A stretch of 59,983 nucleotides of DNA, from contig NZ_WTVM01000007.1 in NCBI RefSeq assembly GCF_012910885.1, positions 1-59,983 on the forward strand. The letters run 5' to 3'. Origin of the DNA: Azoarcus taiwanensis (GTDB lineage: Bacteria > Pseudomonadota > Gammaproteobacteria > Burkholderiales > Rhodocyclaceae). The notes beneath the pieces were generated by a model. The model saw nothing but the letters and a program-made list of their open reading frames with translations, did no database searches and was not told the DNA's origin. This document shows positions 1-16,582 of this stretch, piece by piece; position 1 is the stretch's first letter, and every line of letters begins with the position of its first letter. The translations under genes and the position numbers were made by a program.

Positions 1-660
1 GTCAATTGGCGCCAATTGATTTGGGATTCATTGCCACCAAGTCGTCGCCTACGGAGCGCCGTTGCAGTCCTTCAGCTCAGTGGTTGCCGCCCAGACGAGC
101 TACAGAAAGGCGTCGTCGTGCGCTTTGAGCCGGCTGTTGAAGGCTATCCGATCGGACTCGAGCTCACCATCCTTGGCGCCAAGGTTGGTCGCATTCGAGA
201 CTCCAAAGGGATCGAGCACGATCGCGGCCAGGAACGGAGATCCATCCTGGTTTCACTCGACTCACCAGCAGCGCAGCATCTGCTCGACGAATTCGACTGC
301 GCGATGAAGTCTGGCGCTGAGTACTTGCACGTCAGCTATCACAGAAAGTCGCTGAGCAATCGACTGAGCGAAGTAAGCCGAGTCGTCTTTCCGCGGCGTC
401 GGGAACACATTTCAGCGTACTGCTATCGTCATCAGATCACGAGTGATCACAAAGCCGCTGGCGTTGCACGAGAAACCATCGCCGCAATGCTTGGCCAGCT
501 TTCGGATTATTCGCAGGGCTCGTACGGGCGGCCTCGAAATGGGCGCTCGGCTACGCAACCGCTCGTTCTCGGAGCCTTCGCAACTAACCCAGTGAAGCGC
601 TCAAAGAAGACAGACCGCTTACAACACTTCAAGAAACCGAAGAAGACGCCGGCTCCGTAG
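1..660 (+). CDS. Tyrosine recombinase-like protein, 5' end cut off by window edge
   Basis: The reading frame is open from base 1, so the gene starts outside the window; the TTG at 16 is only the first possible start inside it. About 219 codons are visible. The segment GCRPDEL fits the first catalytic arginine box of tyrosine recombinases. YRHQ fits the HxxR box with the His replaced, and LSDYSQGSYG fits the box carrying the nucleophilic Tyr. A basic Lys-rich tail follows. Together these suggest the C-terminal catalytic half of a phage-integrase-family protein, possibly a divergent one. It converges on the DUF499 gene with a strong hairpin between them. It may belong to the same genomic island or to a neighbouring one. 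The family call is inferred from three short motifs. Confidence 0.55.
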   Translation, partial: VNWRQLIWDSLPPSRRLRSAVAVLQLSGCRPDELQKGVVVRFEPAVEGYPIGLELTILGAKVGRIRDSKGIEHDRGQERRSILVSLDSPAAQHLLDEFDCAMKSGAEYLHVSYHRKSLSNRLSEVSRVVFPRRREHISAYCYRHQITSDHKAAGVARETIAAMLGQLSDYSQGSYGRPRNGRSATQPLVLGAFATNPVKRSKKTDRLQHFKKPKKTPAP

Positions 661-677
661 TCTCAGTTTCGTTCTAC

Positions 678-720
678 CCCGTGCGCCCTTTCCGCGAAGC
701 GGTCACAAAGGGCGCACGGG
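678..720. terminator. 14-bp-stem hairpin between convergent genes
   Basis: Bases 678-691 and 707-720 are perfect inverted copies (14 bp). The 15-nt loop contains a smaller CCGC/GCGG stem. It lies 18 bases after the stop of the recombinase-like gene and 15 bases beyond the stop of the DUF499 gene. A bidirectional terminator is the natural reading, although no T-run follows on either strand. Confidence 0.55.
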
Positions 721-734
721 CGTCAGGTTCAGAA

Positions 735-3569
735 TCAGTCAAACTCGGCGTTCTTGAACCTCAACACACCGCAGTTTTCCCGCACCGCACGCTGCAACCC
801 ATCGTCGAATCCTGAGTCAGTCTCGGCATCGATCTCGATGGAAATCCGCACCTTCACGCCTGGTTTGGCGGTGAAGTTCAACACGACCTCATCCACGATC
901 TCGGCAAACTGCTTCTTCGCCATAACCGGATCGAGATCGATCGTGCCGAAGAAATGCGTTCGCTTTGCCCCGTCCTGCGGTGGTGTTGTGACCACCGGGC
1001 CGGCGCCACGTCCAGAGTCTTCGGCCTTCGTATCACTGCGCCCGCCGCCAGTCGGATAAACAACAGTTCCGCCACCTGATCCTGGTTGCTGAACGGCTTC
1101 TCGCGCACGCTGCTCCTCTTCTGCATACGCGGTAGCCGCAACCGGCTCGAGCAGAATCAACGACGTATCCAGGATCGGTGTCGTGCGCCTGCCGAAACTG
1201 AACCCAAGGTAACGATCGCCTTCCTTGCCCTGCGCGAATCCAAAAAAGTCCCGACTCTCCGCACCCGCTGCCAGCGTATTGTGGAACACCCCGTCGTCGC
1301 GCAAGCGCGGCAAGTACAGTTGCTGGCAAGTTTGCTGCCACACGTTTAACGCATTGGCCTCAGTGTTACCGTCCTTCCAGAACCAGGTCTTCAGCAGATT
1401 GTGCAGGTGGATGGGCGCCCACTCGGTGATCAGCAGCTCGTTCTCGCGCAGCACCCGCTCGATCTCTTGAGTGAGGTTCTGCGCCCCTGTATTGATCTGG
1501 AACGGCTCCCACTGCAGTTCCGACAAACCCTTACCGCGCTCGGCAAACTGCGCCGGAGCCAGCAACCAGCGGTATGTTTCCTTCACCATCCCGCGCAGGG
1601 CCTCGTTGGCGTCATCCAGGCTGCGGCTGGCCTGGCGGGCCTGGTATTGGTCAAGGTTGAGCTTCAGGTCCTTGATGTCGGCGACAATCGATTGCCAAGC
1701 CAGTACGGAGCGCACTTGGTCCTTCAAGCGGCTCACGCTGTCCGCATCCGGGGCCAGGAAGATCAACCGGTTCTGCTTGAAGCGTGGCTGCTCGCCACGT
1801 TGCTTGAGGATTTCGGTGGCGTTGCGGATCGCCGACTGATCCCCGCTGCGGCTGTAGCCGGCTGTCGGCGGCAGCACGACCAGGCGCAGTGCCCAGTCGT
1901 CAGGAATGTCGGCACTGGCGGTGAACACATGCACGCCACCGAACACGCCTTGCGCCAGGGTTCGCTGCACACGGTCGCGCACCGCCGGAATCACATCGTC
2001 CTTGTCCTGAAAGCGCCGCTTGCGGTCTTCCATCTCGCGGCGCAGGTTCGGACGCGTGTCGAACCAGAAGCGGTTATTGCCGGAGTTGAGATAGTGCAAA
2101 CGGTCGTTCAAGCGACGCAGCGCATCCTTGAACACCCCCAATTGCTGCCCTGGTTGCGCGACACCCAGTAGCACCCGCTCCAGTTCGATGCCACGCACCA
2201 TCTGGCTCGCCGTGGTCGGTGCGCTGCCCAGGAATATGGTCCGTGCGGTACGGCGGCACGCCTGCACGCTGCCCAGGCGGGTATCCAAGCTTTCCAGATC
2301 CGTCGTCTCCGCCCGCTCGCCGTCGATGTCGCGCTCCAGCACCGGATCCCAACCCTGCGGCAGGTAGTAGATCGACTCGTTGCGAGTGTCGGCGTCGTAC
2401 AGCGGCAGGCTCCCCGGCATGATCAGCAGGTCGGAATTGTTGTCCTTCCACAGCCGGTGAATGATCTTCGCCATCAGCTTCAGCACGCCGCGGGTACGCT
2501 GGAAGTTGTCGAGCGAAGACCAGTCTTCGTACAGCCGCACGAAGACCTCGGGATGGATCGGATAGGCATGCATCAGGCGCTCGAAGTAGCGCGCCTCTTG
2601 AGTTTCATGCGGCAAGTCCGCGGCGTTGGCGATGTAGTAGTCGGCATACGCGCGGCACACTGCCTCCGCACCGAGCTTGTCGTTGATGTCGGAGAACAGA
2701 CGGCGGCGCACGATTTCGAAGGCTTCTTCGGACGACACCGGCTTCCACAGCGCCTGCACCCGCCCGAAGTAATGCGACAGCGTCGCCAGCGCCTTCACCC
2801 CGCGCTGGCTGCCGGCTTCCTTGTCGGACTCGGGCAGCGAGGCCAGCAATACCGCCGTCGGCACCGCCTTCAGCGCCTCGGTCAGCGCCTGAATAAAGCT
2901 CAAATTGGAATCGAATGAGCCGCCGGACAGCGTCTTGCCTTCCTCGAACTGGCGGATATACGCGACCAGCTCGTCGATCAGAATCACGCAGGGTGCAAAG
3001 CGTCCGAGCAGGTCCGCCAGCACGCCCTTGCCCGGTGAGGTGCCGGACTCGTCCGCCTCGCGCACCATCTCGTAGCCTTCGGCACCCCCCAACTGCCACG
3101 CCAGCTCACCCCAGATCGTCCGCACCGCCTGCCCGTCGCGCTGAATCGGCTGGTTGGGCGACAAGCGAATGCCATCGAGCACCGCGATGCGCGCCCGCGG
3201 CATCTCCACGACGCCAGCCGCATTCAGTATCGATGGAATCCCCGGCATGTTCGACGCCGTCACTTCGCCTTTGGCCAAGTGGTACACCGCCAACATCGTG
3301 TGCGTCTTGCCGCCGCCAAAGGCGGTCTGCAGCTGAATGACCGGATCGCCGCCACGCCCACTCAGACGCCGAACCACTGAATCCAGCAGCAGGCGCATGC
3401 CTTCCGTAATGAACGTGCGCTGGAAGAACAGCGACGGATCCTGATACTCGGCGGTCGCCGTACCCAGATGCACGCGAGACAGATCAGCCGCAAACTCGGC
3501 CTGCTGGAAGGTGCCCTTGAGCACGTCCTCGTGCGGAACGGCGATCTCACGCCACGGTTTCAAACTCAT
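735..3569 (-). CDS. DUF499-family P-loop ATPase of defence operon
   Basis: This is a large ATPase (944 aa from the chosen start). Walker A GGGKTH lies near residues 85-90 and Walker B ILIDEL near 196-201. The N-terminal half is AAA-like. A Gly/Ser-rich linker precedes a C-terminal segment beginning [12 protein letters not shown], a layout I associate with DUF499 proteins. DUF499 ATPases are known from defence islands, usually beside DUF1156 methylases and SNF2 helicases, which is the setting here; their mechanism is not settled. The start at 3569 was preferred to an ATG nine bases upstream because GGGAG (3579-3583) is correctly spaced for it but touches the upstream ATG. It is the last gene of the minus-strand operon, 80 bases after the Hsp70-like gene. 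Confidence 0.85.
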
Positions 3570-3649
3570 CCCTTTCATCTCCCATGAAGCAGCCGAAACT
3601 CAGAGCTTCGGCAACTTCGATACCGCGATCATTCGATGTTCAAAATGGG

Positions 3650-5392
3650 TTATGCCCCACTCACCTGAAGATTCCCGACCTCGTAGGCGGCTCGACCTCC
3701 ACCGCCCGCGAAAGCTTCAGGGCCATCGACCGTTTCCGGCAACTCATGCGCCGCGCCGCCAATCGCCACGGCCAGCTGCGGATAAACGGGTTCCAGATCC
3801 GGACTATCGTCAAGAATCCAGCTCGGCAGCGGATTGACCACCTTGCGCCCAATCCGCTTTCCACGCACTTCCACCCAGCCCTCAGCCAGTGCGCGCATCA
3901 TCGGCAGGCTTGCGCCGCCACCAGTGAGGATCACCGTGAGGTCGGTCTTGGTCAGGTAGTTGATCCAGGTGTCGTGCAACCCCTCCAGCACGCCCCGGAA
4001 ACCTTGATCGACACGCTCGGAAAACTCCCTGACCGGCCGCGACGCCATGAAGTCATCCAACTCAATCTTACCGAGCGTACCGTCGCTAAGCACATACTGG
4101 ACCGAGGTGTCGGCAAACAAGCGCTCCTTCAACCCACGAATTCGACGGCTCAGATCGGCTGCCACAAGTCGGCCGTGAGGCTCGGTCAGGTCGACACCCT
4201 GGGCATCCAGGATGAACTTCTTCAGCATCATGTCAATCCGATCGCCTGCCTGCATCAGGGCCTTGATCGATCCCGGCACCTGAAACACACGCGTGATCTC
4301 GCGCTGCTCATCCTCGCGAAGCAGGAAGAGTCCGAAATCGGTCGTACCCGCGCCTACGTCGATCACCATGAAAGGAAGGCGCTTGTCCTCGCCGTCGACG
4401 AGCGCACCGGCCGCCACGGCCACGGGCTCGGGCACACCGTCGGCGATCAGATACTCCGGTCGCCGGTCCAAGGCGCGCACCTGATCGACAGCATCTTTAA
4501 CTTCAGCCACATCCAGGCCGCCCTCCCACCGACCGTGAAACGTGTCGGCAAGAATCTGGGCCTCGGCCATCCAGTGACGCATCAAACGGTCCGCCCACGA
4601 CTTCTGCGCCGATGACGGCCAGCACGGATGCGCAAACCGCCGACGCACATAACGAGAGAGTGGGCCTTTCGTGTCTTCCACCGACCAGGTCTGGACCTGC
4701 GACACCGCCAGATCGGTCAAGTACGCGAGATAGATCCGGATCAGATCGCCTTCGGTCAGCTTGACCTGGGTCGGATTCATTTCGGCGCGCAACGGGTATG
4801 CGTCAAGATTTCCGTCAGAGCGCTGACTCAGCCAACTCTTGATCGAATCCAATCGAGCCCGGTTGGAGTCAGAAAGCTCCTGACTCGCATCCACAGCCTC
4901 GAAACCGAATAGCACCTTGCCGCCATCAGTGATGAAAACCGACGACGGCACTGCATAGCCTTCACCTCCGGCTTGAGCACCCAGTTCGAGCTCAAACGGC
5001 TGACCATCGTCCGATTGCGCAAACGCCTTGGACATGGCCGTCCCAAAGTCCAGGCAAAGCAGCACATCGGGGTCGTCAGGCGTGCTCCTGTCCAACGCAT
5101 CCGTGACCAGTGCGACCTGCGGCTGAGGCGTTTCCGGCAACTCTGGAACAGGCGCCTCCTCCTGAGGAGTTGGCGCGGAAACGGTTGCACCCCCGGCAAG
5201 AGGCGGCGGACTTGGCGGCATGGGAGTCGGTGTCTCAGGGGGTTTCGGGGTTGGTCCGGCAGCCCTGCCGCGCAGCAGACCCAAGGCGACCCCCAGCGCC
5301 TCACGCTCTGCAGACGAAATTGTGCCGATGGCATTGCGATCGATACGCTCGATCAAGCTCTCCAGCAGAAACCTGGCAATCTCCGGATTCAC
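3650..5392 (-). CDS. Hsp70-like ATPase lacking a substrate-binding domain
   Basis: This is an actin/Hsp70-fold ATPase of about 580 aa. Three nucleotide-binding motifs are visible: LCLDFGTAMSK (about 112-122), VIDVGAGTTDFG (about 343-354) and ILTGGGAS (about 488-495). The first ~110 residues are a helical stretch followed by a Pro-rich linker. The protein ends about 85 residues after the last motif, so the beta-sandwich substrate domain and lid of DnaK are missing. A GTG start at 5392 is preceded by a strong GGGGAGGGGG ribosome site; the in-frame TTG at 5407 lies inside it. The upstream gene ends 27 bases before and encodes a possible GrpE-like partner. In a defence operon it might work as an ATP-driven assembly switch rather than a folding chaperone, which is inference. 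Confidence 0.85.
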   Translation of the reverse strand: MNPEIARFLLESLIERIDRNAIGTISSAEREALGVALGLLRGRAAGPTPKPPETPTPMPPSPPPLAGGATVSAPTPQEEAPVPELPETPQPQVALVTDALDRSTPDDPDVLLCLDFGTAMSKAFAQSDDGQPFELELGAQAGGEGYAVPSSVFITDGGKVLFGFEAVDASQELSDSNRARLDSIKSWLSQRSDGNLDAYPLRAEMNPTQVKLTEGDLIRIYLAYLTDLAVSQVQTWSVEDTKGPLSRYVRRRFAHPCWPSSAQKSWADRLMRHWMAEAQILADTFHGRWEGGLDVAEVKDAVDQVRALDRRPEYLIADGVPEPVAVAAGALVDGEDKRLPFMVIDVGAGTTDFGLFLLREDEQREITRVFQVPGSIKALMQAGDRIDMMLKKFILDAQGVDLTEPHGRLVAADLSRRIRGLKERLFADTSVQYVLSDGTLGKIELDDFMASRPVREFSERVDQGFRGVLEGLHDTWINYLTKTDLTVILTGGGASLPMMRALAEGWVEVRGKRIGRKVVNPLPSWILDDSPDLEPVYPQLAVAIGGAAHELPETVDGPEAFAGGGGRAAYEVGNLQVSGA

Positions 5393-5419
5393 CTGCCCCC
5401 TCCCCAACTTCGTTCTGAG

Positions 5420-6889
5420 TTATTCGACCAATCCCTTCAACACCACGTCGCCCGCCGTTCCATCCTTGCGTATGCGCACCACAGCAGGTTGGCGGATGAC
5501 AACCTTCTGGCGCGCCACCTCACCCACCGCCTGAAAATACTTCGGCGCAAAATCGACCTCCTGCCCAACCTCCCCGTACAACGCAAGGCTTCGCTGCTGG
5601 GCAACCTGGTCCATCTGCAACAGCAACCCTTCGAAACGCTGGAAGCAATCCTGCGTAACGCTCACCAGGCTCTGCTCGTAGATATCGAGCACCGAGATCA
5701 CCGGTTCCTTCACGCCCGCAACCGCCTGCCGGGCTTCCCTGGCTGCATTCAGCGCCAGTCCGATTGCCACATCCGCCTCGCGCGCCGCCACCTCCAGCGC
5801 GGTACTGCTGGCCTCACGCTTGGCGATAACGCGGCCATGGATGAGCCATTGCCGGGTGTCCTCATCCAGCTCCGGATGCCGTTCCGCAATCTCCTTCGCG
5901 ATCGCGCGCGCCCGCAGTGGATAGTTGCACAGCATGTCGAGCTGCTCCAAGAGACCTTGGTCACGCACGCCTTGCCGACCCAGCAGAATCAGCGCCTCCC
6001 TCACATCCTTGACCAACAATGACAGGGCGCCCTGAAGCACGTCCGGCCAGGTACTGCCGCCCAGCATCTGCCGGCAGTAGGCCACCGCCTGGAAAACCGC
6101 CGGATCGGTCGCCACCGAAAAGCGCGACCGCACGATCTCGTGTGTCAGCAACACCACCTCTTCCGCCAGTTCATGCTGAACCTTCTCTTCCTTCGGCCGG
6201 CCAACCGCCCGCAGCGGCAAGCTCACCAGCGCATGCAGCGCCTTACCCAACTCATCGCCCGCTTCCAGCTCGGATGTCGGAATCAATGCACGCAGGGCTG
6301 ACAGCGTCCGCGCTTGCCGGCGGCCGATGGAATCGCCCGGCTTCTCGGTTTCGGGTCTAACTCCGGCCATTGCCTGCGCCACACGCCCAAGCAGCTCAGC
6401 CAGCGTTTCACTGCGCGCCAGCAAGGCAGCAATCAACTCCTCGCGAGCCTTTTCACCGGTCTCCTCGTATGCAATCGCATCCGCAAGATACCCAGCCAAC
6501 CAGGCACCGTCCGCCAGCGCCAAGGCACGTGCAACGTTCAGCCGATCATCAGCCTCCTTCAGCAACTGCAATGGCGGAAAATCCTCGCCCATTGCGGGCG
6601 CCAGCCACAGCTGCAGATTCGGCTGCAGACGCTTCACCATCTGCGCGGCATGAACCACGCAGGCAATTGCCAGCAGACGGGTTTCCGGTTCTACCGTGGG
6701 GTCAACCGCCACCTGCGTCAGCTGCGCCAACCCCGCCTTGAAACGCGCGTCATCCGCCTGTTTGGGAATCAGCTTCTCCCGCATCAAGGCTCTTAGGGCT
6801 TTCTGCTTGTGCACGACAGGGCTATCGGACGCAAAGACGTCGAAGGCAGCGTCGCCGCTGATCGCATCAGTCATATCCGCCTGAGTCAT
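5420..6889 (-). CDS. Helical protein with possible GrpE-like C-terminus
   Basis: This is a 489-aa protein of no family I can name with certainty. It is Ala/Leu/Glu-rich and mostly helical, without membrane segments. The last ~60 residues (starting near LYGEVGQEVDF and ending VVLKGLVE) have the length, Gly pattern and beta-rich look of the GrpE C-terminal domain. GrpE is the nucleotide-exchange factor of Hsp70, and the very next gene encodes an Hsp70-like ATPase, so the two may form a chaperone/exchange-factor pair. The ATG at 6889 was chosen over an upstream TTG because a G-rich ribosome site precedes it. The GrpE link rests on pattern and neighbourhood only. Confidence 0.6.
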   Translation of the reverse strand: MTQADMTDAISGDAAFDVFASDSPVVHKQKALRALMREKLIPKQADDARFKAGLAQLTQVAVDPTVEPETRLLAIACVVHAAQMVKRLQPNLQLWLAPAMGEDFPPLQLLKEADDRLNVARALALADGAWLAGYLADAIAYEETGEKAREELIAALLARSETLAELLGRVAQAMAGVRPETEKPGDSIGRRQARTLSALRALIPTSELEAGDELGKALHALVSLPLRAVGRPKEEKVQHELAEEVVLLTHEIVRSRFSVATDPAVFQAVAYCRQMLGGSTWPDVLQGALSLLVKDVREALILLGRQGVRDQGLLEQLDMLCNYPLRARAIAKEIAERHPELDEDTRQWLIHGRVIAKREASSTALEVAAREADVAIGLALNAAREARQAVAGVKEPVISVLDIYEQSLVSVTQDCFQRFEGLLLQMDQVAQQRSLALYGEVGQEVDFAPKYFQAVGEVARQKVVIRQPAVVRIRKDGTAGDVVLKGLVE

Positions 6890-6947
6890 ACCACCACCCC
6901 CCCTGCCAGCTGCCTCAGAAAGCAACAGACTCCTCGTACTGCACTGC

Positions 6948-8663
6948 TCACGCCAGCACCTCTTGGTCCTTGCGCAGCATGTAGGCGAACTTATCCTTGA
7001 TGAGTGCCCTGCGGGCGGCGATGAAGTCGTCGTAGCGTTCCAGCGCCCACAATGCTGGGTCCTCTGGAATCAGGTGCATCTGCAGATAGCGCTTGTGCTC
7101 CTCATCCGTGGCGAATCGGGAACGGTCAAACCACTGGGCCGGCGGCGTGTCGCACTTGCCCGAGAACCCATTCTCATCGGCCGTCAGCAGCATGCAGTTG
7201 GCGATCTGGTCGCGGTGCTCGGCACGGTAGTGCAGGATGTTGCGCTTGCCGCTCTCCGGGTTGATGTCCTTCACCGTCTTCAACAGGCTCTGCGGGAAGA
7301 TGTGGTCCACCTGTGGGCCGTTTGCATCCAATGCGGGCGAATAGTCGAAGTCCCGATACCAGAGGTTGAAGAAGAGGTGGATCGTCCTCGACCCGTAGTA
7401 CTGGTCGAAGATCACCGCCGGCGTAATTTCCAGGCTGCGCCCTTCCGCACGGATCACGCCATAGACCTCGGAGAGTACGAAATCCTGTTGCTCCTGGATG
7501 TTGCGCACCAGCTTGTCGATCAGGTTGTCCGGGCTGCCACCGAACACCCCCGTCACCAGCACCCGCAGCAGGTAGGCCGCCATGTCCCGATTGAGCGCGA
7601 ACTTCGCCGGGTAGTGGAAGCGGTAGTAGATGAGCGGGATCAATGCCAAATATGAGGGCATCGCCCGGTCGGAACGGATATAGGTCTTCGCAACCAGCAG
7701 ATCCCGCACCGCCTTGATCGCTTCGGCCAGCTCGTCCCACTTGGCAATGATCTCTTCCTTGGTCTTGCCGTCGCGGAACTTGCCCACCTCGTAGCGCGCG
7801 CCCCTGCCCAGTATCGTCAGGCAGGACTTCAGCACGAAGTCGCGATCGAAATCGAATCCCCCTTGGTTGAGATCCTCCAGCAGCGCTTCCATCTCGCCAT
7901 CAGCCTCATCCCAACTCGAAGTCAGCAACGAGAACAACAGGTCGGACTTGCCCAGCTTGGTGCCGCCGGAGTTGGCTCGGATGAAGATCTCGACGATGTC
8001 ATCCACGCGGTAGGCATCCGGGTTGTCGATGCCATCCAGCTCCTGGAAGGTAATGTTGTCGTCGGTCACAAACTCCTGCCGCACCCGCTCGACGTTCCTG
8101 CTAACGGTGCGGAAGGCGTCTTGTGACAGCGGATCAGGGGCATTCTGCGTGAGTGCATCCGCCATCTCACCCGGCAGTTTGTTGTTCTGGAAAACGAGAT
8201 CCTTGAACCGCACCCAGGGCCAACCTGGATTCGCCGCCTTGAAGGCAAAGCGGAAACGGATGTCCTCCGGTGCCGCCGCCGCGCCGCCACTGAGTACGTC
8301 GAAATACATCTCGCGCCCCTCATAGCTGCCGCGCAGACCAATGAAAAGGCTTTGCAGGCGCTGCTGCCCATCGAGCACCATCATCTTCGAGCGCGTATTG
8401 TCCGGCACATAGAAATCGGTCAGCTTGATGTCGCGCCGGTAGTTGTCGATGAACTTGCGGTGCTTCACCGCCTCCTTGGTCTTCCACACTAGCAACGTGC
8501 TAATCGGGTACTCGCGCATGATCGAATCGAACAGGCGCGCAATCTGCTCTTCACTCCACACGAAGGGGCGTTGAATGTTCGGCAACCAGAAGCCACCACC
8601 TTCCGCCTCGTCGTCGTTCAGGTAGCTGACGATCTTCCGGATCGGCAGTTTCTTGTTCTGCAT
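6948..8663 (-). CDS. DUF262 protein with C-terminal HNH-type nuclease motif
   Basis: A 571-aa protein. The N-terminal DUF262 domain (ParB/sulfiredoxin-like NTPase fold) shows QRPFVW at 31-36 and the hallmark DGQQR at 98-102. A later segment, ANSGGTKLGKSDL, is also typical. Near the C-terminus, VDHIFPQSLL (about 452-461) followed by NCMLL (about 489-493) fits an HNH/DUF1524-type nuclease centre. DUF262-DUF1524 proteins include the GmrSD type IV restriction enzymes, which cut modified DNA. Here the gene lies in a methylase/helicase operon, 17 bases downstream of the DUF1156 gene, so it may be the DNA-cutting component. Substrate choice cannot be read from sequence. Confidence 0.85.
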   Translation of the reverse strand: MQNKKLPIRKIVSYLNDDEAEGGGFWLPNIQRPFVWSEEQIARLFDSIMREYPISTLLVWKTKEAVKHRKFIDNYRRDIKLTDFYVPDNTRSKMMVLDGQQRLQSLFIGLRGSYEGREMYFDVLSGGAAAAPEDIRFRFAFKAANPGWPWVRFKDLVFQNNKLPGEMADALTQNAPDPLSQDAFRTVSRNVERVRQEFVTDDNITFQELDGIDNPDAYRVDDIVEIFIRANSGGTKLGKSDLLFSLLTSSWDEADGEMEALLEDLNQGGFDFDRDFVLKSCLTILGRGARYEVGKFRDGKTKEEIIAKWDELAEAIKAVRDLLVAKTYIRSDRAMPSYLALIPLIYYRFHYPAKFALNRDMAAYLLRVLVTGVFGGSPDNLIDKLVRNIQEQQDFVLSEVYGVIRAEGRSLEITPAVIFDQYYGSRTIHLFFNLWYRDFDYSPALDANGPQVDHIFPQSLLKTVKDINPESGKRNILHYRAEHRDQIANCMLLTADENGFSGKCDTPPAQWFDRSRFATDEEHKRYLQMHLIPEDPALWALERYDDFIAARRALIKDKFAYMLRKDQEVLA

Positions 8664-8680
8664 CGTTGTCGCTTCCTAAA

Positions 8681-11560
8681 TCAGATATCCAGACTCGCCT
8701 GCGCCCCCACATGGCCCGCCTCGCTCGCCCCGCGCTCCACGCCGCTCCAGGCGGTGATCAGCTCGTTGTAGGCGCGAGCGTCTTCGGCCCAGCCCTTGCG
8801 CTCGCACAGGGTATAGAGACGATATGCCAGCGCGCGGATGGGTTCGGCGCGGGCGGGCATGCGGGCGAGCAGGCTGCCTGCGGCGGATTCGCCGTCCTGG
8901 TTGAGCGCGCGGATCATCTGGTGCAGCGCTTCCCACACCGGCACGCGGGTGTCGGTTTCCGGGTTCCAGTCGCGCGGCATCTCGGCCCATTTCAACAGGC
9001 GCAGGTCGCCCTTGCCGGATTCAACCACGCCGGCCTCAGTCAGGCCGGACACGCTGGTGCCCTTGGCGCGGGCGAGCACGTCGGCCTCGCCATACTTGCC
9101 GGTGGCCCAGCCCTGGCCCTCGAACCAGTGCAGGCAGAACTGGGTGTCGTGGTCGAAGTCGTCCTCGGCGAGAAAGCGGTTGATGAGTTGCAACGCGGTG
9201 CGCACGCTCATCGGCTTGCCATCGGCTTCCAGCACCGCCGCGTACTGACTGAAGATCGCCATGCCCGGGCCGATGATGGCCTGCGACAGATCGACCGGCG
9301 CCACGGGGCTGTTGATGCCGCCGCGGGTCATGTCCATCAGCGCCTCGGGCAGCACGGCGTTGAGTTCGCGAATGAACTCGCGGCGACTGACGGTGGCGGC
9401 ACCGGCGTCGCGCTTGCGGCAGACGAGGACGATGCTGGAGGCGAGCGCGTTGGTGCCGCTCGCAATCATTCGACCAGCGCCCTCGGTGCGCACCGGCCAG
9501 GTGCCAGTGAGGGCGAAGCCGGCGCGAATCACGGCGTCGAGGAAGGTCTCCCAGCCAGTACTCGAGGTGCCTGCGTCGCCCTTGGTTTCCGCCTGCTTGA
9601 AGGCGTAGTAGATCGTCACCGGAAAAGTCGGGTGTGCCAATTCCGCCAAGTTGTGGATGGCATGGGTCATACCGTCGAGGAAAAATGACTCTGCCTTTTC
9701 CTTGCTGCCGTGACGGTAAGGCGTCGCGACCAGTTCCTCGGCTTTCGGTACCGCCAGCGTCGCGTAAAGGCCAGGGAAGATCGACCTCAGGCTCTTGCGC
9801 AGCCAAACGTAAAAGAAATCGGATAGGTCGGCGTAACCAATGTTGTCGTAGTACGGTGGATCGGTGGAGACGACTTTCTGGCTACTGATGGTTTGTGTTT
9901 GAGCATCTTGCTGTACGGCGAGGCCAAACCCGCACTTCGGCAAGTCACGAACTGACATTGACCCCTTATCGACCGCAGCCTCCAGGCTTCCGCCCGCGTC
10001 AGCAAATGGGTTCGACTCCGCAAAATCCCAAACCATCGGGATCGCTTGGCGGGCAAAAGTCTCGCGGAACGCCCCCCTGTCATTCATCCATGAGGCAATG
10101 GATGAACCAATGTTCGCAACCTTGCTGATGGCAAAGGCTAAATACACCCCCACCGCCTGCGCATACGCCGTCGCGCCGCTGCCGCCCGCATCCAGCCCTG
10201 TGCCGTCGTCGGCCAATCCTGCGGTCAACGCGTCCTGACGGCAGTTTTCGATGGCCTCCTGCACCAGATCGGAAAAGGTGGTCAGCGCTACCAGTTGGCG
10301 GGGGGTGAAGAGGTCGCCGAATTTGCTCAGCCCATAGTTCAGCGTCCAGAAGTTGCGCGGATCGTCGGGCAACGGGGTTTCCGGCTTCCATTCAGGCTGT
10401 GCCTGACGCGCAATGGCTTCATGCAGTTCAGTCGGCGACAGATAGACCCGGCTGCGCACACCTTCGGCGACGACTGCCATCAGCCGTTGCCCGAGTCGTC
10501 CGGCAACACCTTCCGCCTTGATGTGCTTCGGTTCAATCGGCGTATCCGACAGCAGACATTGGAAGTTCGCGCCACGTCCAAGCTTGGTTCCATCCTTCGC
10601 ACTCTCCGGCGGCGTCCCCACTTTCACCGTGAAACGATAGCCATCCCCCTCGACCACCGGCGCCACATACGCCTCCTTGCCCGCCTTGCTCGACAGCACG
10701 AAGGTCGAGGCCAGCGGCACCTCGGCATGGCTGAAGGCTGGGTTGGGGCTCTTCACCGTGCGCGCCCACAGCCACGCGATCACGGTGAGCTTCTGCCCGA
10801 GCAGCGGCTTCAGGTCCGGGCGTTCGGCGACCATCTCGGCGGTGACTTCGATCTTCGGGTACAGGTGGCCGATGCGCTTTTCCGCCTCCGCCCGCATCCA
10901 GGCGCCGTAGCGGCGCACGTCCTCGGCCAGTCCCTTGGCGCCGGACCAGTCCTCAGAAAGCCTGCCCTGCTTGTCGCCGGGGATGCGCGGTCCCACCGGC
11001 GCACGGCCGGCAAAGCGCGGCGGGATCTCGATCATCGCCTTGTTGATGGTCACCGCCACCGGGTTGAGGTCACTGGCGTAGCTCTCCAGCCCCAGGCGCT
11101 GCGCCTCCAGCGGCAGCGCACCCCCGCCCGCGAAGGGGTCGTGGAAGGCGGGCAGCTTGTCCGGGTTGAAGAGCTCGGCCGCCTGCGGATGGCCCTTGTT
11201 GAGCGCACAGGTCTCGCGCCAGCTCTTCCAGATCTCCTCGCGGGCGCGGGCGAGCACCTCCTCGTTGTTGGTGTTCTCCCACTGCACGAGGTCTTCGATG
11301 ATCTTGAACAGGCGCTCGCGCTCGACGGCCGCCTTTTCCTTGTTCACCCCGCGCCCCAGGTGGCGCTCGTAGCCGGGGTCATTGACCATCTGCGCAAAGA
11401 TCACCGCCCGCGCCGCGGCCAGCGGCCGGCGCGCCCACCACAGGTGCAGCGTGCTGGGGTGACCGTGGCGGATGGACTTCTCGCGCGCCGCGGCGACGTT
11501 GATGGCGTCGAGCGGGAGGGCGACTTCGATGAGCTTTTTGGGGGTTTTGATGGGGGTCAT
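8681..11560 (-). CDS. DUF1156-containing adenine-type DNA methyltransferase
   Basis: A 959-aa protein. The N-terminal DUF1156 region has [14 protein letters not shown] (about 33-46). A SAM-binding motif I, DPFAGGG, lies at 141-147. The catalytic motif DPPYYDN lies at about 567-573 and fits amino-methyltransferases acting on adenine (or cytosine N4). Large inserts separate the motifs, as is usual in this family. The frame stays open about 117 codons upstream, but that part overlaps the NYN gene in another frame. The ATG at 11560 matches the family N-terminus ([16 protein letters not shown]) and has GGAG about 11 bases ahead. It starts 8 bases after the NYN stop, suggesting coupled translation. 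It probably marks host DNA or is the modification arm of the defence system. Confidence 0.9.
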
Positions 11561-11568
11561 GGGGTGCT

Positions 11569-12189
11569 TCAACTCCAGCTCGCCGGGCGGTGCAGAACGA
11601 AGCCGTCCGGCTTGGCAATGTGTTCGGGTAACTGACTGGCACGCAGCTTGTCTTCGCCAATGGCGAGATGGCCGTTGGCGGTTTGCTTGAGTGCCTTGGA
11701 ATGGCGCCGGGGCGGAAAGGCAACGATGACGCGCTTGTTTGCAAATCGCTCGCGCACCCGCCGGATGGGCGTGACCAGATCGCTGTCGCCCGAGATGACG
11801 AGCGCGGTGTCGAAGGCATCGTCGAAAGCGTCGGTCATCAGCTGGATGGCGATATTCACGTCGGTCATCTTTTCTTCGTAGTCGGGCCAGGTGGCATGGC
11901 AGGCCCGGCATTCTCGGACCTTTTCAAGGTAGTGACCGAACTGGCAGCGCACACCTTGCACGGCAAGCGCCTCGAGATAGTCGTTCTGCCGCTTCTGGTC
12001 GGCTACGTTGCGGCCGTTGTCGCGGATGCGGGCGGTAAAGTAATGGGTCGCCACCAGGGTTTGCCCCGGCTTGAGCAGTTGCTGGCCCAGCGCGGCGACA
12101 TCCAGCCAGTAGTAACGCTTGAAACCCGCCTGCTTGAGACCGAAATACAGGTTGAAGCCATCAATGTAGGTGATGACGCGCTGCATCAT
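11569..12189 (-). CDS. NYN-domain (LabA/DUF88-like) putative RNase
   Basis: A 206-aa protein with the NYN/PIN-like fold signature. YIDGFN lies at 8-13, an acidic TDVNIA at 109-114 and SGDSD at 133-137; these carry the metal-binding aspartates of this nuclease group. A CRAC Cys pair at 94-97 and further Cys/His nearby could hold zinc. NYN proteins are generally RNases, but the target here is unknown. It lies between the helicase and methylase genes of the defence operon, after a 211-base gap holding structured repeats, and 8 bases before the methylase start. Two ATGs in tandem (12189, 12186) are equally possible starts. Confidence 0.85.
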
Positions 12190-12257
12190 GCACTGCCCTC
12201 CAGGAAGTCAGCGCGCTTGACAATGCAGGACGGCATGGCCAGAATTGAACCACTAAC

Positions 12258-12383
12258 CCCCCCGGAGATAGCATCTCCGGCCCGACGCCCCGCAAGGGGC
12301 GTCTCTGTTTGTGGAGTTAGTTTGCGCCCCGCCCGGGATCGCATCCCGGGTCCGACGCCTCCCTTGTGGAGGCGTTTCTGTTT
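12258..12383. repeat. Two tandem copies of a two-hairpin element
   Basis: Copy 1 (about 12258-12310) has hairpin a at 12262-12280 (8-bp stem, 3-nt loop) and hairpin b at 12284-12303 (8-bp stem, GCAA loop). Copy 2 (about 12328-12383) has hairpin a at 12332-12350 (8-bp stem) and hairpin b at 12355-12375 (8-bp stem, 5-nt loop). Both copies end in a shared tCTGTTT. The stems differ in sequence between copies yet all remain fully paired, as expected for structure under selection. The pair fills most of the helicase-NYN gap. It could be a REP-like element, an RNA processing or attenuation site, or a small RNA. Confidence 0.75.
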
Positions 12384-12400
12384 CTGGCTCTCACCAAGCT

Positions 12401-15400
12401 TCAAGGCAGAACCTCCGCTGAGGTGGCGCGCGCCAGCAACTGCGCCAAATCCAGATTGATGCTGCTCACCGCCCAGTCGGGCTCTTGCACGAACGGCCGC
12501 CGGACGTAGTACGGACCCTCCACATCGTCGCCATCGGCCAGCACCACCGGCAGGATGAACTTGTCGGCCTGGTTGAGCCCGTAGAGGATCTCGTTGCGGG
12601 TGACGGTGATGGTGGTGGCGCCTTTTGCCCGGCCCTTGACCTCGATGTGACGGGCGGGCGGCAGGCGGCCATCGACTGACTTGGGCAGACTGGTGACGTC
12701 CCAGCCGCACTTCTGCGCGGACACGTCGATGACCTCATGCCCGAGGGCGCGCTCGGCATTCATCACCGCCTGCATGGCAATGGCCTCGATGCGGGCGCGG
12801 GCGGCGGCGTCTGCGCTCCAGCCGGGTTCGCCACGACGCTGAAGCAACAGCCCCTGCGGGATGACCAGCGCGCCGCCAACCACGGTGGGTGTGCTGGAAA
12901 TGACATGGCGCATGGCCTGCAGCTCGGCGGTGCGAGTCTGCAGCCGGGCGGATAGCTCGTCCAGGGTACGCAGGGCGTTGTCGTAGTTGAGGCGCGGCTG
13001 CTTGCCGGCGGCGACGTCGTCCTTGAGCTTGATCGAGCGGTCCTGCCAGTAGTTGATTTCCTTTACCAGCCGCTCATGCACTGCGGCGAGCGTCTTGTCG
13101 ACCTGCTGCACGCGGCGGGCGCGGACTTCCTCGAAGTGCTCGGGCACGAGATGGGTGGAGGCGTGGGCGAGCGCCCGCTGTTCGAGTTGGTTGGCGTGGC
13201 CGGTGGCGACCCAGGGGGCGTCGAGCACGTCGCGGATGCGGGCGAGATCGTCGGCGGCGATGGGTTCAAGATCGAGGTGTGGCGCCCAGCCGGCATGGAT
13301 GGCCTCGCCTGCAGGGTCGATCTCCACGAACTGCATGCGGCGCGACACGATACGGTTTTGGTCCGCGCCTTCCTTCACCGCGTGATCGACGATGAACATC
13401 AGCCGCGGCGTGAGCCCCATGTCTGCCGGATCGACCAGCACCGCACCTTGCTTGAGCTTGTTGCGATGCTGTTCCAGCACGATGTCGGTGACGGACTGCA
13501 TGAGCGGGTGGCCAGGGTGGAGGAGGCTCGCCATCTTGGCCTCCACCCGGCCGGGCACGCGAACGTGGTCCTTCTCGAAGCAGACGCGCTCGTAGCGGCG
13601 CAGCACCGGCTCGTTGTAGCGCCTGTCCCTGCCGGCGATCTGGCGGTCGCGTTCGCGGATGATGGCCGGCACATGGGTGATCTCGGCGCGGCCGGCTTCG
13701 CGCGGTCGCAGTTCGCCCCCGAGCGACTGGAATGCCTGATTGAAGAAGGCGCGGATGAAATAAGGCTGCAGCTTGCGGGCTTCGGCCTTTTCCATCTCTT
13801 CCTTCACCGCGTAGAGGCGCTGCGGGTCCATGACCTCTTCACACAGCGCGTTGCGGCGGATGATGGTCTGCAGGTGGTCGGTATCGAGGGCGCCTTCGAT
13901 CTTGCGGAAGAGCTCGGCTTTGCGCGCGGGGTCTTCGCCGTACTTGATGGCCTCGATGAGTAGCTCGCGCAGACTCTTTTCCTCGAACACTTCACCGAGG
14001 ATGTCGAACACCCGCCCGCCCAGGGCCTTGCGCTCGACTTCGAGCTTGTCGAACAGGCGCTGGAAGACGTCGCCTTCACGCGTTTCATTGGCGACCATGT
14101 TCCACAGGTGGCAGATCTCGGTCTGGCCGATGCGGTGGATGCGGCCGAAGCGCTGCTCGATTCGGTTGGGGTTCCAGGGCAGGTCGTAGTTGACCATCAG
14201 ATTGGCGTTCTGCAGGTTCACGCCTTCGCCGGCCGCGTCCGTGGCGATGAGCACGCGCACCACCGGGTCGTTGCGAAAGAGCTCCTGCACCTTGCGCCGG
14301 TCCTCGCGCTTGACGCCACCGTGGATGAGCACCACCGCCTCTTCGCTGCCAAGCACGCCGCGGATCTTTACGGCGAGGTAGTTGAGGGTGTCGCGGTGTT
14401 CGGTGAAGACGATGAGCTTGCGCTGCCGGCCGTCGGCGTCGTGCATCTCGGGCGTGTCCTGCAACAGGCGCGAGAGTTCGTCCCACTTGCGATCCTGGCC
14501 GGAATGCACCACTTGGCGGGCCTGTTCTTCGAGCCCTTCGAGGATGACGATCTCGGCCTGCAGCTCTACGATGGTGCGCGCGGCAGTGGCCTGATCGACG
14601 ACGGATTCCTCGAACTCCTCGTAGTCTTCCGGGGTGAGGTTGTCGGGCGCGTCCCAGATATCGTCGCCGGCGCCATTGGCGAACACGCTGTCCGCCAGCA
14701 CTTCACCGCGCTGGCGCAGCTTCTCTTCCTCGACCCGACGCTGCAGCTTGGCCCGACGACGGCGCAGTGACTGATAGATGGCTTCCGGGCTGGAAGCCAG
14801 CCGGCGCTGAAGCGCAGTGAGCGCGAAACCGACCGTACCGCGGCGCGCGCCGTCTTCGAGTTGGTCGGCGCGGTTCATCTCCGTCTTCACGTAATCCGTG
14901 ACTGCGGTGTACAGCGCTGCCTCCAGATCCGAGAGGCGGTAATTCACCGTGTAGGCTCGCCGTTCCGGGAAGAGCTTGGTGCCGTCAAAGCGCAGCATCT
15001 CCTCCTTGACCATGCGGCGCATGAGATCGGACACATCCACTTTGTGGGCGCCATCGCGGAACTTGCCGTAGAAGCGATCGGAATCCAGCAGCGACAGGAA
15101 AAGCTGGAAGTCCTCTTCCTTGCCGTTGTGCGGCGTCGCCGTCATCAGCAGGAAATGCCGGGCGATGCCACCGAGCAGTTCGCCGAGCTGAAAGCGCTTA
15201 GTCTTGTTGATCTTGTTGCCAAAGTAGCTCGCCGAGAGCTTGTGCGCTTCATCGACCACCACCAGATCCCAGCGGGTGAGTTCAAGTTTGGCGAGCAGGT
15301 CCTCGTTGCGCGAGAGCTGATCGACTCGGGCTACGAGCAGGTCCGTGTCCTCGAACGGGTTGCCGCTGGCGCTGTTCTCGACGAGGTCGCGACCGAAGAT

Positions 15401-15940
15401 GCGGAACTCCAGCCCGAACTTCTCGCGCATCTCGTCCTGCCACTGCTCGACCAGGCTACCCGGCGCGACGATGAGCACGCGGCGGGCGTCGGCGCGCATC
15501 AGGAGCTCGCGAATGAAGAGGCCGGCCATGATGGTTTTGCCCGCGCCAGGGTCGTCCGCCAGCACGTAGCGCAGCGGCTGGCGCGGCAACATGGATTCGT
15601 AGACGGCGGTGATCTGGTGCGGCAGAGGTTCGACGTTCGACGTATGCACCGCCATCATCGGGTCGAACAGATGGGCTAGGTTGATGCGCCACGCCTCTGC
15701 CGCGAGTTTGAAGGCTTCCCCCGGTGCATCGAAGGCCCACGGGCGCCCCTCTTCGGCCAGCGCCAGCAATGCTTCGTCGCTGCGAAACACCATGCGCTCG
15801 CCCAAGCGGCCATCAGGGGTCTTGTAGACGACGGTGAGCGCTTCTGTGCCAACCGGCTCAACGGCGATGACGCGAACGATCTGGCCCGGTTCGATCCCGG
15901 CAAGCGCGGCGTCTTTCCTGACCTCTTCGAGTCTGAGCAT
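12401..15940 (-). CDS. SNF2-type helicase with C-terminal DUF3883
   Basis: A 1179-aa superfamily 2 helicase of the SNF2/RapA kind. Walker A DDPGAGKT is at 129-136 and DEAH at 230-233. The second RecA-like half has [14 protein letters not shown] and the closing motif [10 protein letters not shown]. The last ~110 residues match DUF3883: GWDVTSLP (about 1079-1086) and HIEVKGR (about 1098-1104), a layout like the D/E-x-K core of restriction-endonuclease folds. Such helicases accompany DUF1156 methylases and DUF499 ATPases and probably move along or remodel DNA. It is the first gene of the seven-gene minus-strand cluster. The helicase call is firm; the system role is inferred. Confidence 0.93.
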
Positions 15941-16086
15941 GGGTATCCGGGTTCAACAGCAGGCAAATTGGGGATTATGCCAGCCAGCCAACCTATCGGG
16001 CCGGCACGATCGCACATTGTCATTGTGCCGACCCCACAGGCTTACTGAAGGCGCCACCTGCCAGCCGGTGGCACTCAGCTGTCGGA
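15941..16086. promoter_or_regulatory. Leader region of the defence operon
   Basis: This 146-base gap lies between the HTH gene and the helicase start. It holds a 6-bp GCCACC/GGTGGC stem near 16048-16067, which could end the HTH transcript. A short inverted pair GCACA/TGTGC around 16012-16028 could bind a regulator. No convincing -35/-10 pair was found, so the promoter is unplaced. Confidence 0.3.
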
Positions 16087-16359
16087 TCAGCTGACTTTCC
16101 GCGGGCGCCCGACTTTCGGCCTGGTGACGACTTCAACGCCGCCAGCGGCAATAGTAGTCATCGGATCGACAGGCCACTTCGCGAACTGTGCAAGCACGAC
16201 TGTTCGCGAATAGCGTGGCATATCGCCAACCATGACGTAGGGAAAGATCGGCTCTCCACGCTGCCGCGCGCGCCGAATAGTTCGAACATCCACTTCCAGA
16301 AGAACCGCCAGTTCGACCTCGGAAAGAATTTCTTTCGGCTCCTCTACTCTTGCCGGCAT
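16087..16359 (-). CDS. Small helix-turn-helix protein, excisionase/regulator type
   Basis: A 90-aa protein. LSEVELAVLLEVDVRTIRRA followed by a Lys/Arg-poor turn and PRYSR looks like a MerR/excisionase-type helix-turn-helix. The C-terminus ends GRPRK, an AT-hook-like tail. The frame runs back to 16509, but GGAGG (16367-16371) sits 7 bases before the ATG at 16359, so the shorter form is preferred. The location beside an integrase module and directly upstream of the defence operon fits either a recombination directionality factor or a regulator of the island. Which of these applies cannot be told from sequence. Confidence 0.6.
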   Translation of the reverse strand: MPARVEEPKEILSEVELAVLLEVDVRTIRRARQRGEPIFPYVMVGDMPRYSRTVVLAQFAKWPVDPMTTIAAGGVEVVTRPKVGRPRKVS

Positions 16360-16582
16360 CTCGAAACCTCCAACAGACACAGATACCGGAATTCTATTTC
16401 GACACTTTTCCCTTTGAAAAGCTTTGTAAGCGTCGTCAACCAGAATATCTACCCGTCTACTGAATTGATTCAATAGCCAGATTTTAGCTACCAAATCTTT
16501 ACTGAGCACAGTGCTATAGGGTTGAATTAAGAAGAGAGGTCAAATAGCCCAAGGGCGTTTAATCGTTTATTTAATCAAATCA
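16360..16582. promoter_or_regulatory. A/T-rich divergent intergenic region
   Basis: This region lies between the HTH gene (minus) and the Rep-like gene (plus). It is clearly more A/T-rich than the flanking defence operon, with several TTTAAT/ATTTAA-like stretches around 16555-16580 suitable for promoters in both directions. An open frame across 16360-16509 could extend the HTH protein by 50 residues, but it lacks a ribosome site. No individual promoter is claimed. Confidence 0.35.

What the first reader, a model, noticed from the sequence alone, without database searches (positions are those of the whole stretch)
735..15940. Seven-gene defence cluster: helicase, NYN, methylase, DUF262-HNH, GrpE-like, Hsp70-like and DUF499 ATPase
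All seven genes lie on one strand with short gaps. SNF2-DUF3883 helicase, DUF1156 methylase and DUF499 ATPase are a known predicted defence trio (Hma/DUF499-DUF1156 type, from memory). The added DUF262-HNH nuclease, NYN RNase and chaperone-like pair suggest either an extended subtype or a composite system with DNA and RNA effectors. A tRNA-linked integrase module stands next to it.
Basis: partly seen in the sequence, partly recalled or inferred. Interest (0 to 1): 0.85.

Follow-up and report, generated by a model that had tools for sequence, protein, structure and literature searches.

The report
Small RNA paired with NYN nuclease
Inside an otherwise known bacterial anti-phage gene cluster lies an overlooked small RNA that comes with one of the cluster's RNA-cutting enzymes in many kinds of bacteria, and that some viral sequences carry alone, which suggests a toxin held in check by RNA and phages that carry the antidote.

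Summary
The seven genes are there, in order, on the minus strand. Core: hmaA-hmaB-hmaC (PADLOC Hma; 'Type-1 BREX-related', PMC12839542). The others match PADLOC candidates HEC-09 (NYN), HEC-05 (DUF262-HNH) and PDC-M61A/B. They are interchangeable cargo, not a seven-gene subtype: of 31 Hma loci only this one has all four; 2 have M61A/B, 1 GmrSD.

New: the hmaA-NYN gap holds two copies of an undescribed ~60-nt RNA on the plus strand (12251-12312, 12321-12385): promoter-like sequence, hairpin, terminator hairpin with U-tract. 78 of the 80 best NYN loci from 84,980 genomes carry it near NYN, across many phyla; 15 of 18 pairs show two-sided changes. It follows NYN, not Hma: 0 of 8 NYN-less Hma loci have it, and 59 of the 80 NYN loci show no hma match. 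Nineteen viral contigs (about 8 groups) and one isolated phage carry it with no NYN found nearby. More distant NYN relatives lack this RNA.

Best reading: an RNA-restrained NYN ribonuclease, type III toxin-antitoxin-like, stowed in Hma; phage orphans would be antidotes. No activity was tested. Rfam 15 and the paper searches showed nothing; preprints could not be searched.

The parts
12401..15940 (-). hmaA: SNF2 helicase with C-terminal NOV_C domain
   Evidence: PADLOC HmaA 2120 bits over residues 1-1176; Pfam Helicase_C, SNF2-rel_dom, NOV_C
12321..12385 (+). second copy of the small RNA, no promoter-like sequence of its own in the short gap before it
   Evidence: R2 66.0 bits; sequence
12251..12312 (+). 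first copy of the small RNA: 5' single strand with AACCCC, hairpin 1, linker, terminator hairpin 2 with U-tract
   Evidence: R2 74.4 bits, E 1.4e-19; fold -30.2 kcal/mol, z -4.2, two hairpins; covariation in relatives
12217..12245 (+). predicted sigma70-type promoter of the RNA: TTGACA 12217-12222, 17-nt spacer, CAGAAT 12240-12245 (4 of 6 at -10)
   Evidence: read from the sequence; same place and spacing in many relatives
11569..12189 (-). NYN-domain protein, likely ribonuclease (HEC-09), partner of the RNA
   Evidence: Pfam NYN E 2.1e-15; HEC-09 E 6e-101; AF2 pLDDT 94.6, nearest PDB folds VPA0982 and MARF1 NYN
8681..11560 (-). hmaB: DUF1156 DNA adenine methylase
   Evidence: PADLOC HmaB 1823 bits, Pfam DUF1156; start corrected
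6948..8663 (-). DUF262/GmrSD-type nuclease (HEC-05), cargo
   Evidence: GmrSD_N E 1.6e-27, GmrSD_C just under its cut-off, HEC-05 326 bits
5420..6925 (-). PDC-M61A: helical-repeat protein with long helices and small C-terminal beta part, cargo
   Evidence: PDC-M61A 534 bits; AF2 pLDDT 80 from two sequences
3650..5407 (-). PDC-M61B: probable actin/Hsp70-like ATPase, cargo
   Evidence: PDC-M61B 515 bits; weak Hsp70/MreB/FtsA matches
735..3578 (-). hmaC: DUF499 AAA+ ATPase, no HEPN domain found
   Evidence: HmaC 1569 bits, DUF499 E 6.3e-30

Best explanation
The locus is an Hma system carrying cargo. One cargo item is a two-part module: a NYN ribonuclease and a ~60-nt structured RNA with its own promoter-like sequence and terminator. 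Shown by computation: the RNA is a conserved partner of one NYN clade, placed and built as a separate transcript, and tied to NYN rather than to Hma. Inferred: NYN is a toxin or abortive-infection RNase that the RNA binds and silences, as RNA antitoxins do in type III systems, though with unrelated protein and RNA folds. When a phage shuts off host transcription or destroys the short RNA, NYN would be freed and cut RNA, as a back-up if Hma fails. Orphan copies in phages would be decoy antidotes.
For: RNA near NYN in 78 of 80 loci (E up to 1, weakest 27.9 bits; the misses, L126 and L134, have only 74 and 164 nt before NYN on their contigs). Strong RNA hits (over 55 bits) in 5 of 200 relatives: the 4 with NYN plus one decayed hma plasmid. 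In 339 genomes of the phylum, RNA at 50 bits or more in 8, strong NYN (296 bits or more) in 6, all 6 shared and adjacent. Hma loci: NYN+RNA+ 23, NYN-RNA- 8, none mixed (RNA). Covariation 0.468 vs 0.198 shuffled and at most 0.136 slid. Strand: G-U 122 vs A-C 27 cells; promoter match of at least 9/12 before the RNA in 69 of 89 vs 7 of 89 on the other side (13% in shuffles); TAnnTTTG in 17 of 22 Bacteroidota-type loci vs 0. Up to 4 copies. Several unpaired bases strongly conserved while stems vary in step, as expected of a protein-bound RNA. A more distant NYN group in viral contigs has another two-hairpin RNA with a terminator directly upstream, the type III layout. Orphans: 0 of 19 viral contigs with NYN in the fetched flank; isolated phage Dfl-JY45 has the RNA (57.6 bits) and no NYN match.
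Against: No toxicity, binding, expression or phage data. In most loci the RNA is divergent from NYN, unlike type III systems. The model finds more than one copy in only 8 of 78 loci (some extra copies, as in L064 and L065, are seen by eye but not hit). More distant NYN relatives lack this RNA: 22 of 23 viral-contig NYN loci and 12 genomes with weaker NYN matches. Bacterial orphans exist: G447 behind tRNA-Ala with no NYN match, and Sulfuricystis with decayed hma. L136 has the RNA 2.3 kb from NYN. The 19 viral contigs fall into about 8 groups and were fetched only in part. In phages the RNA could serve merely as a terminator. Unpaired columns 2-5, 9 and 10 vary.
Confidence: 0.6

Rival explanations
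1. The RNA is an activating cofactor or guide that NYN uses to find or cut target nucleic acid, rather than an inhibitor.
For: Close pairing of one RNA and one nuclease clade over many phyla; single copy in most loci by the model.
Against: No unpaired variable stretch longer than about five bases apart from the terminator loop, so little room for a guide. Viral contigs carrying the RNA without NYN nearby would then help the nuclease.
Confidence: 0.17
2. The element is a cis-acting regulator of NYN: antisense RNA, attenuator or terminator, with no trans role.
For: Hairpin 2 plus U-tract looks like an intrinsic terminator; in the hma operon the RNA is antisense to the hmaA-NYN gap.
Against: Same strand as NYN in L106, L111, L112; downstream of NYN in L096 (four copies, each after a promoter-like sequence) and L125; orphan copies in viral contigs; hairpin 1 and the conserved single strands are not needed for a terminator.
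Confidence: 0.12
3. All seven genes form one extended Hma subtype.
For: One strand, one order; Caldimonas L065 has six of the seven.
Against: All four accessory genes together in 1 of 31 loci; GmrSD 1 of 31, M61A/B 2 of 31; no hma match near NYN in 59 of 80 loci.
Confidence: 0.05
4. The RNA is a component of Hma itself, for instance bound by the RRM-like end of HmaC.
For: It sits inside the operon; PMC12839542 describes an RRM fold in DUF499 ATPases (section 29 read).
Against: 0 of 8 NYN-less Hma loci have it (two of the eight are distant relatives); 59 of 80 NYN loci show no hma match.
Confidence: 0.03

Closest known systems
Hma / Type-1 BREX-related (DUF499-centred) systems
   Same: hmaA, hmaB, hmaC in order with full-length PADLOC matches; nuclease cargo beside the core is described in PMC12839542, including GmrSD and, less commonly, PIN endoRNases (sections read), the wider group to which NYN domains are related (recalled).
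   Different: Its main text has no 'NYN', 'DUF262', 'chaperone' or 'Hsp70' and, in the parts read, no RNA gene; supplements not seen.
PADLOC candidates HEC-09, HEC-05, PDC-M61
   Same: The four accessory proteins match these models strongly. HEC as 'Hma-embedded candidate' is recalled.
   Different: They are protein models; no RNA partner is part of them.
Type III toxin-antitoxin systems (ToxIN, CptIN, TenpIN; recalled)
   Same: Ribonuclease gene next to a small structured RNA that can be repeated in tandem; phage-borne RNA copies (recalled for ToxIN escape).
   Different: NYN protein instead of the ToxN fold; two plain hairpins; RNA mostly divergent, with its own promoter-like sequence and terminator; neutralisation untested.
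MARF1-type and VPA0982 NYN domains
   Same: Nearest solved folds of the predicted NYN structure.
   Different: No small-RNA partner known to me (recall).

Membership tests
Hma (Type-1 BREX-related) | helicase HmaA, DUF1156 methylase HmaB, DUF499 ATPase HmaC in one operon | tested here: met
   2120, 1823 and 1569 bits, one strand
Hma (Type-1 BREX-related) | C-terminal nuclease on the helicase | tested here: inconclusive
   NOV_C domain at 1051-1140; its PD-(D/E)XK nature is recalled, catalytic residues not checked
Hma (Type-1 BREX-related) | HEPN fused to DUF499 (in part of the family) | tested here: not met
   Only DUF499 found in the window's HmaC; an optional feature (1370 of 2446 taxa)
HEC-09 / NYN nucleases | NYN domain with conserved acidic residues | tested here: met
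   Pfam and PADLOC matches; D10, D110, D135, D137 invariant in 31 sequences; their catalytic role is recalled
Type III toxin-antitoxin | small structured RNA encoded beside a ribonuclease gene | tested here: met
   78 of 80 loci; covariation; ribonuclease activity itself is inferred from the fold
Type III toxin-antitoxin | RNA in tandem repeats | tested here: inconclusive
   1-4 copies; more than one in 8 of 78 loci by the model
Type III toxin-antitoxin | RNA upstream and co-directional, terminator before the toxin gene | tested here: not met
   Mostly divergent; co-directional only in L106, L111, L112 and in the viral-contig class
Type III toxin-antitoxin | toxin of the ToxN fold | tested here: not met
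   NYN fold; no ToxN among the 50 PDB matches shown
Type III toxin-antitoxin | RNA binds, is processed by and neutralises the toxin | not testable with these tools
   needs experiments
GmrSD type IV nuclease | DUF262 N-terminal and HNH C-terminal domains | tested here: inconclusive
   GmrSD_N met; GmrSD_C 21.7 bits, cut-off 23
Hsp70/actin-like ATPase (M61B) | actin-like nucleotide-binding motifs | tested here: inconclusive
   weak matches only; LDFGTAMSK and DVGAGTTD kept in L065, LTGGG becomes LTGGS; motif meaning recalled
GrpE (M61A) | GrpE fold or sequence | tested here: not met
   no Pfam match, no GrpE among the 50 PDB folds shown; the model rests on two sequences

The most novel reading that the evidence does not exclude
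A widespread RNA-NYN immune module, found in many bacterial phyla, alone, on plasmids and inside or beside several restriction systems, in which a short-lived structured RNA restrains a NYN ribonuclease, and against which several phage lineages (one with the RNA right behind a gp32-like gene) independently keep RNA antidotes; each NYN clade has its own cognate two-hairpin RNA.
Probability: 0.45. Interest if true: 0.93.

Novelty: new variant of a known kind. Interest (0 to 1): 0.85.

Why it matters
If right, this is a large RNA-controlled nuclease family outside the known type III folds, with a ready explanation for why Hma and some other restriction loci carry NYN genes, and with phage-borne RNAs as natural inhibitors. 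It also warns that protein-only defence searches miss RNA partners inside known loci.

Tried and rejected
The element was first read on the wrong strand (model R1, also used); the promoter positions and the G-U versus A-C count reversed this, and R2 replaces R1. A REP-like mobile repeat was rejected: in the own genome the model hits only the two copies in the window, and in 1.19 Mb of NYN loci the 88 hits all lie within about 2.4 kb of NYN. Weak whole-genome hits (3 at about 30 bits, 4 at 29-32 bits) were set aside; viewed they look like lone terminator hairpins. A 17.4-bit and a 13.7-bit hit and a 14-bit hit were also set aside. PDC-M61B: own genome complete plus one fragment at a contig end (G178) in 200 relatives, the other 52 of 54 matching genomes being short generic hits; only the own genome in 398 of the phylum at E up to 1e-14; none on plasmids. 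An att repeat of the tRNA was not found. Rfam: no family at gathering score for the RNA; only a sub-threshold asX2 match in the window. Papers: HEC-05/HEC-09/PDC-M61/HmaA/Hma-embedded (75 papers hold at least one term, 20 listed, only PMC12839542 relevant by title); DUF499 with DUF1156 and phage (that paper alone); NYN domain with toxin-antitoxin and noncoding RNA (3, none relevant by title); NYN with type III and RNA antitoxin (0); NYN domain with small RNA and phage defense (0); NYN with ncRNA and antitoxin (3, seen only in the listing, none on this subject by title). The embedded-defence preprint is recalled and was not read.

Rows dropped: the promoter count left out 12 second copies and the truncated L104 (102 hits to 89); its shuffles keep single-base, not dinucleotide, content; the 22 Bacteroidota-type loci were picked by record title plus L144. 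A6 uses one copy per locus. Neighbour scans covered 10 chosen proteins from 8 standalone loci with PADLOC and 10 from 9 with Pfam, not all. The A9 class of viral-contig RNAs uses 12 loci picked by a hand-written pattern; 14 of the 26 loci given to that pattern did not match it.
Full report
What was claimed and what is there. The seven genes exist as described, with corrected starts for hmaB and NYN. The core is Hma, also called Type-1 BREX-related; I saw passages, section 29 and part 1 of section 35 of PMC12839542 and the Hma passages of PMC8565338. The four accessory genes all have PADLOC candidate models: HEC-09, HEC-05, PDC-M61A and PDC-M61B.

Is it a seven-gene system? No. In 31 loci with hmaB and hmaA or hmaC (L058 and L070 are the same record; two of the NYN-less ones are distant relatives), NYN is in 23, M61A and M61B in 2, GmrSD in 1, by tblastn with the window's proteins. 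Most of the NYN-bearing loci were fetched for NYN. Among the 10 strong HmaA matches (1248 bits or more) found without regard to NYN in 299 genomes, 4 have NYN and 6 do not. The stretches between hmaA and hmaB, and between hmaB and hmaC, differ in size from locus to locus (39-4391 and 10-5106 bases). The closest relative of the full set is Caldimonas manganoxidans L065, which has all but GmrSD. M61B was found complete only in the own genome among 200 relatives and among 398 genomes of the phylum.

The overlooked RNA. The 211-bp hmaA-NYN gap folds unusually well (z -3.5) and has a match between a helicase and a NYN gene on a Thermus oshimai plasmid, and another behind a decayed hmaA on a Sulfuricystis plasmid. 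A search with a NYN alignment over one genome each of 84,980 species returned the best 80 of at least 526 relatives. A covariance model, built from 40 copies most of which come from these loci, finds the element in 78 of the 80, 88 copies in 1.19 Mb, all within about 2.4 kb of NYN. By record titles the loci include Proteobacteria, Bacteroidetes, Chloroflexi, Planctomycetes, Actinobacteria, Latescibacterota, Verrucomicrobia, Armatimonadetes and others.

Structure and strand. On an alignment of 80 copies, 93.7% of cells pair, 15 of 18 pairs show changes on both sides, and the covariation score is 0.468 against 0.198 in shuffles and 0.136 at most when slid. The true strand is the one opposite to NYN in most loci: G-U wobbles outnumber A-C cells 122 to 27 on it (55 of the 122 come from one pair), and a TTGACA-N15..19-TATAAT match of at least 9 of 12 stands before the RNA in 69 of 89 copies against 7 of 89 on the other side and 13% in shuffles; with at least 11 of 12, in 23 against 0. 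In 62 of the 69 the -10 box ends within 8 bases of the model's start. The Bacteroidota-type box TAnnTTTG is there in 17 of 22 such loci against 0. The RNA therefore reads: 5' single strand with AACCCC or AAC, hairpin 1, linker, terminator hairpin 2, U-tract. In the window it is on the plus strand, two copies, 74.4 and 66.0 bits, promoter-like sequence at 12217-12245.

Tied to NYN, not to Hma. Among Hma loci NYN and RNA are both present in 23 and both absent in 8. Of the 80 NYN loci, 21 gave any tblastn match to hma proteins and 59 none in the fetched stretch; some contigs are short and diverged hma genes may be missed. L058/L070 has hma genes only 27-32% identical to the window's while its NYN is 60% identical. 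Whole genomes: strong RNA hits in 5 of 200 relatives, namely the 4 with NYN and one whose hit has the sequence of the Sulfuricystis plasmid; in two searches of 339 phylum genomes, RNA at 50 bits or more in 8 and strong NYN in 6, all 6 with the RNA beside NYN. The two without NYN are that Sulfuricystis remnant and G447, where the RNA lies 13 bases behind a tRNA-Ala. The tie is to one NYN clade: 12 genomes with weaker NYN matches lack this RNA, and so do 22 of 23 viral-contig NYN loci, 25-50% identical; a Streptomyces plasmid NYN at 41% has a 30-bit match beside it.

Flexible arrangement. The RNA is divergent from NYN in most loci, co-directional in L106, L111 and L112, and downstream in L125 and L096, the latter with four copies each after a promoter-like sequence. 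Standalone modules lie next to a type IIG restriction-methylase (L076), a type I methylase (L103) and a Dsr1-like gene (L092), and 1.7 kb from a type III-like gene (L143), but others lie beside housekeeping genes.

Other clades. Some NYN relatives in viral contigs carry another two-hairpin RNA ending in TGCTTT or TGCATT directly before NYN, on the same strand; in 12 chosen copies 6 of 14 pairs show changes on both sides. Small E. coli and Klebsiella plasmids with a NYN gene also show hairpin-like repeats before it, seen by eye and not analysed further.

Orphans in viral sequences. Two pattern scans of viral contigs hit 20 contigs; one (L265) is the contig of L144, which has NYN. The other 19 all match R2 (43-79 bits), none has NYN in the fetched stretch of 3-14 kb, and none is among the contigs hit with NYN. 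They are not independent: by flanking sequence they form about 8 groups, one of five near-identical loci, four of which lie on contigs of 270-271 kb. In the group L248/L251/L253/L254/L257/L258/L262 the RNA lies just after a gene whose product, tested in L258 and L253, is a single-strand DNA-binding protein (phrog_224; 'gp32-like' is my name for it); in L261 after a baseplate wedge gene. One isolated phage, Dolichospermum phage Dfl-JY45, of 50,697 phage records has the RNA (78% to the consensus, R2 57.6 bits) and is not among the three phage records with NYN.

Mechanism. The NYN model is confident (pLDDT 94.6), nearest to VPA0982 and MARF1 NYN, with invariant acidic residues, so an active ribonuclease is likely. 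Several unpaired bases are strongly conserved (columns 7, 8, 11, 24, 36 at 1.4-1.9 bits), stems vary in step, and no variable unpaired stretch exceeds about five bases except the terminator loop; this suits a protein-bound RNA better than a guide. Adjacency, orientation freedom, occasional copy gain and orphan copies without the nuclease favour an RNA that restrains NYN. That step is inference; nothing here measures toxicity or neutralisation.

Limits. The covariance models were built from many of the loci they were then counted on; the whole-genome searches and the viral scans are the less circular tests, and the viral patterns were consensus patterns that miss diverged copies. Preprints could not be searched; absence from print rests, and absence from Rfam 15.

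Noticed in passing
L247:7046-7110 (G447): Orphan copy of the RNA 13 bases behind tRNA-Ala(CGC) in a genome with no HEC-09 match at E up to 1e-15; possibly a solitary antidote read through from the tRNA.
   Followed up: partly
L056:2170-4215 (G201:C143): RNA copies flank a duplicated end of hmaA before NYN, as if the repeats had recombined.
   Followed up: no
L167 and L168: 3.6-4.2 kb enterobacterial plasmids carry a NYN relative with other hairpins before it; 348 plasmid records match NYN, 207 of them Klebsiella.
   Followed up: partly
window 5420-6925 and 3650-5407: PDC-M61A/B: helical-repeat protein plus probable actin/Hsp70-like ATPase, rare; the pair also lies in Caldimonas between hmaB and hmaC.
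   Followed up: partly
window 16001-18000: G+C falls to about 52% between hmaA and the integrase; ORF 16583-17998 (471 aa) has no Pfam or PADLOC match.
   Followed up: no
L096:10664-11044: Four RNA copies about 105 bases apart, each after its own promoter-like sequence, downstream of NYN.
   Followed up: partly
L027:7516-8947: Decayed hma locus on a Sulfuricystis plasmid with no NYN match but with the RNA and its promoter-like sequence.
   Followed up: partly
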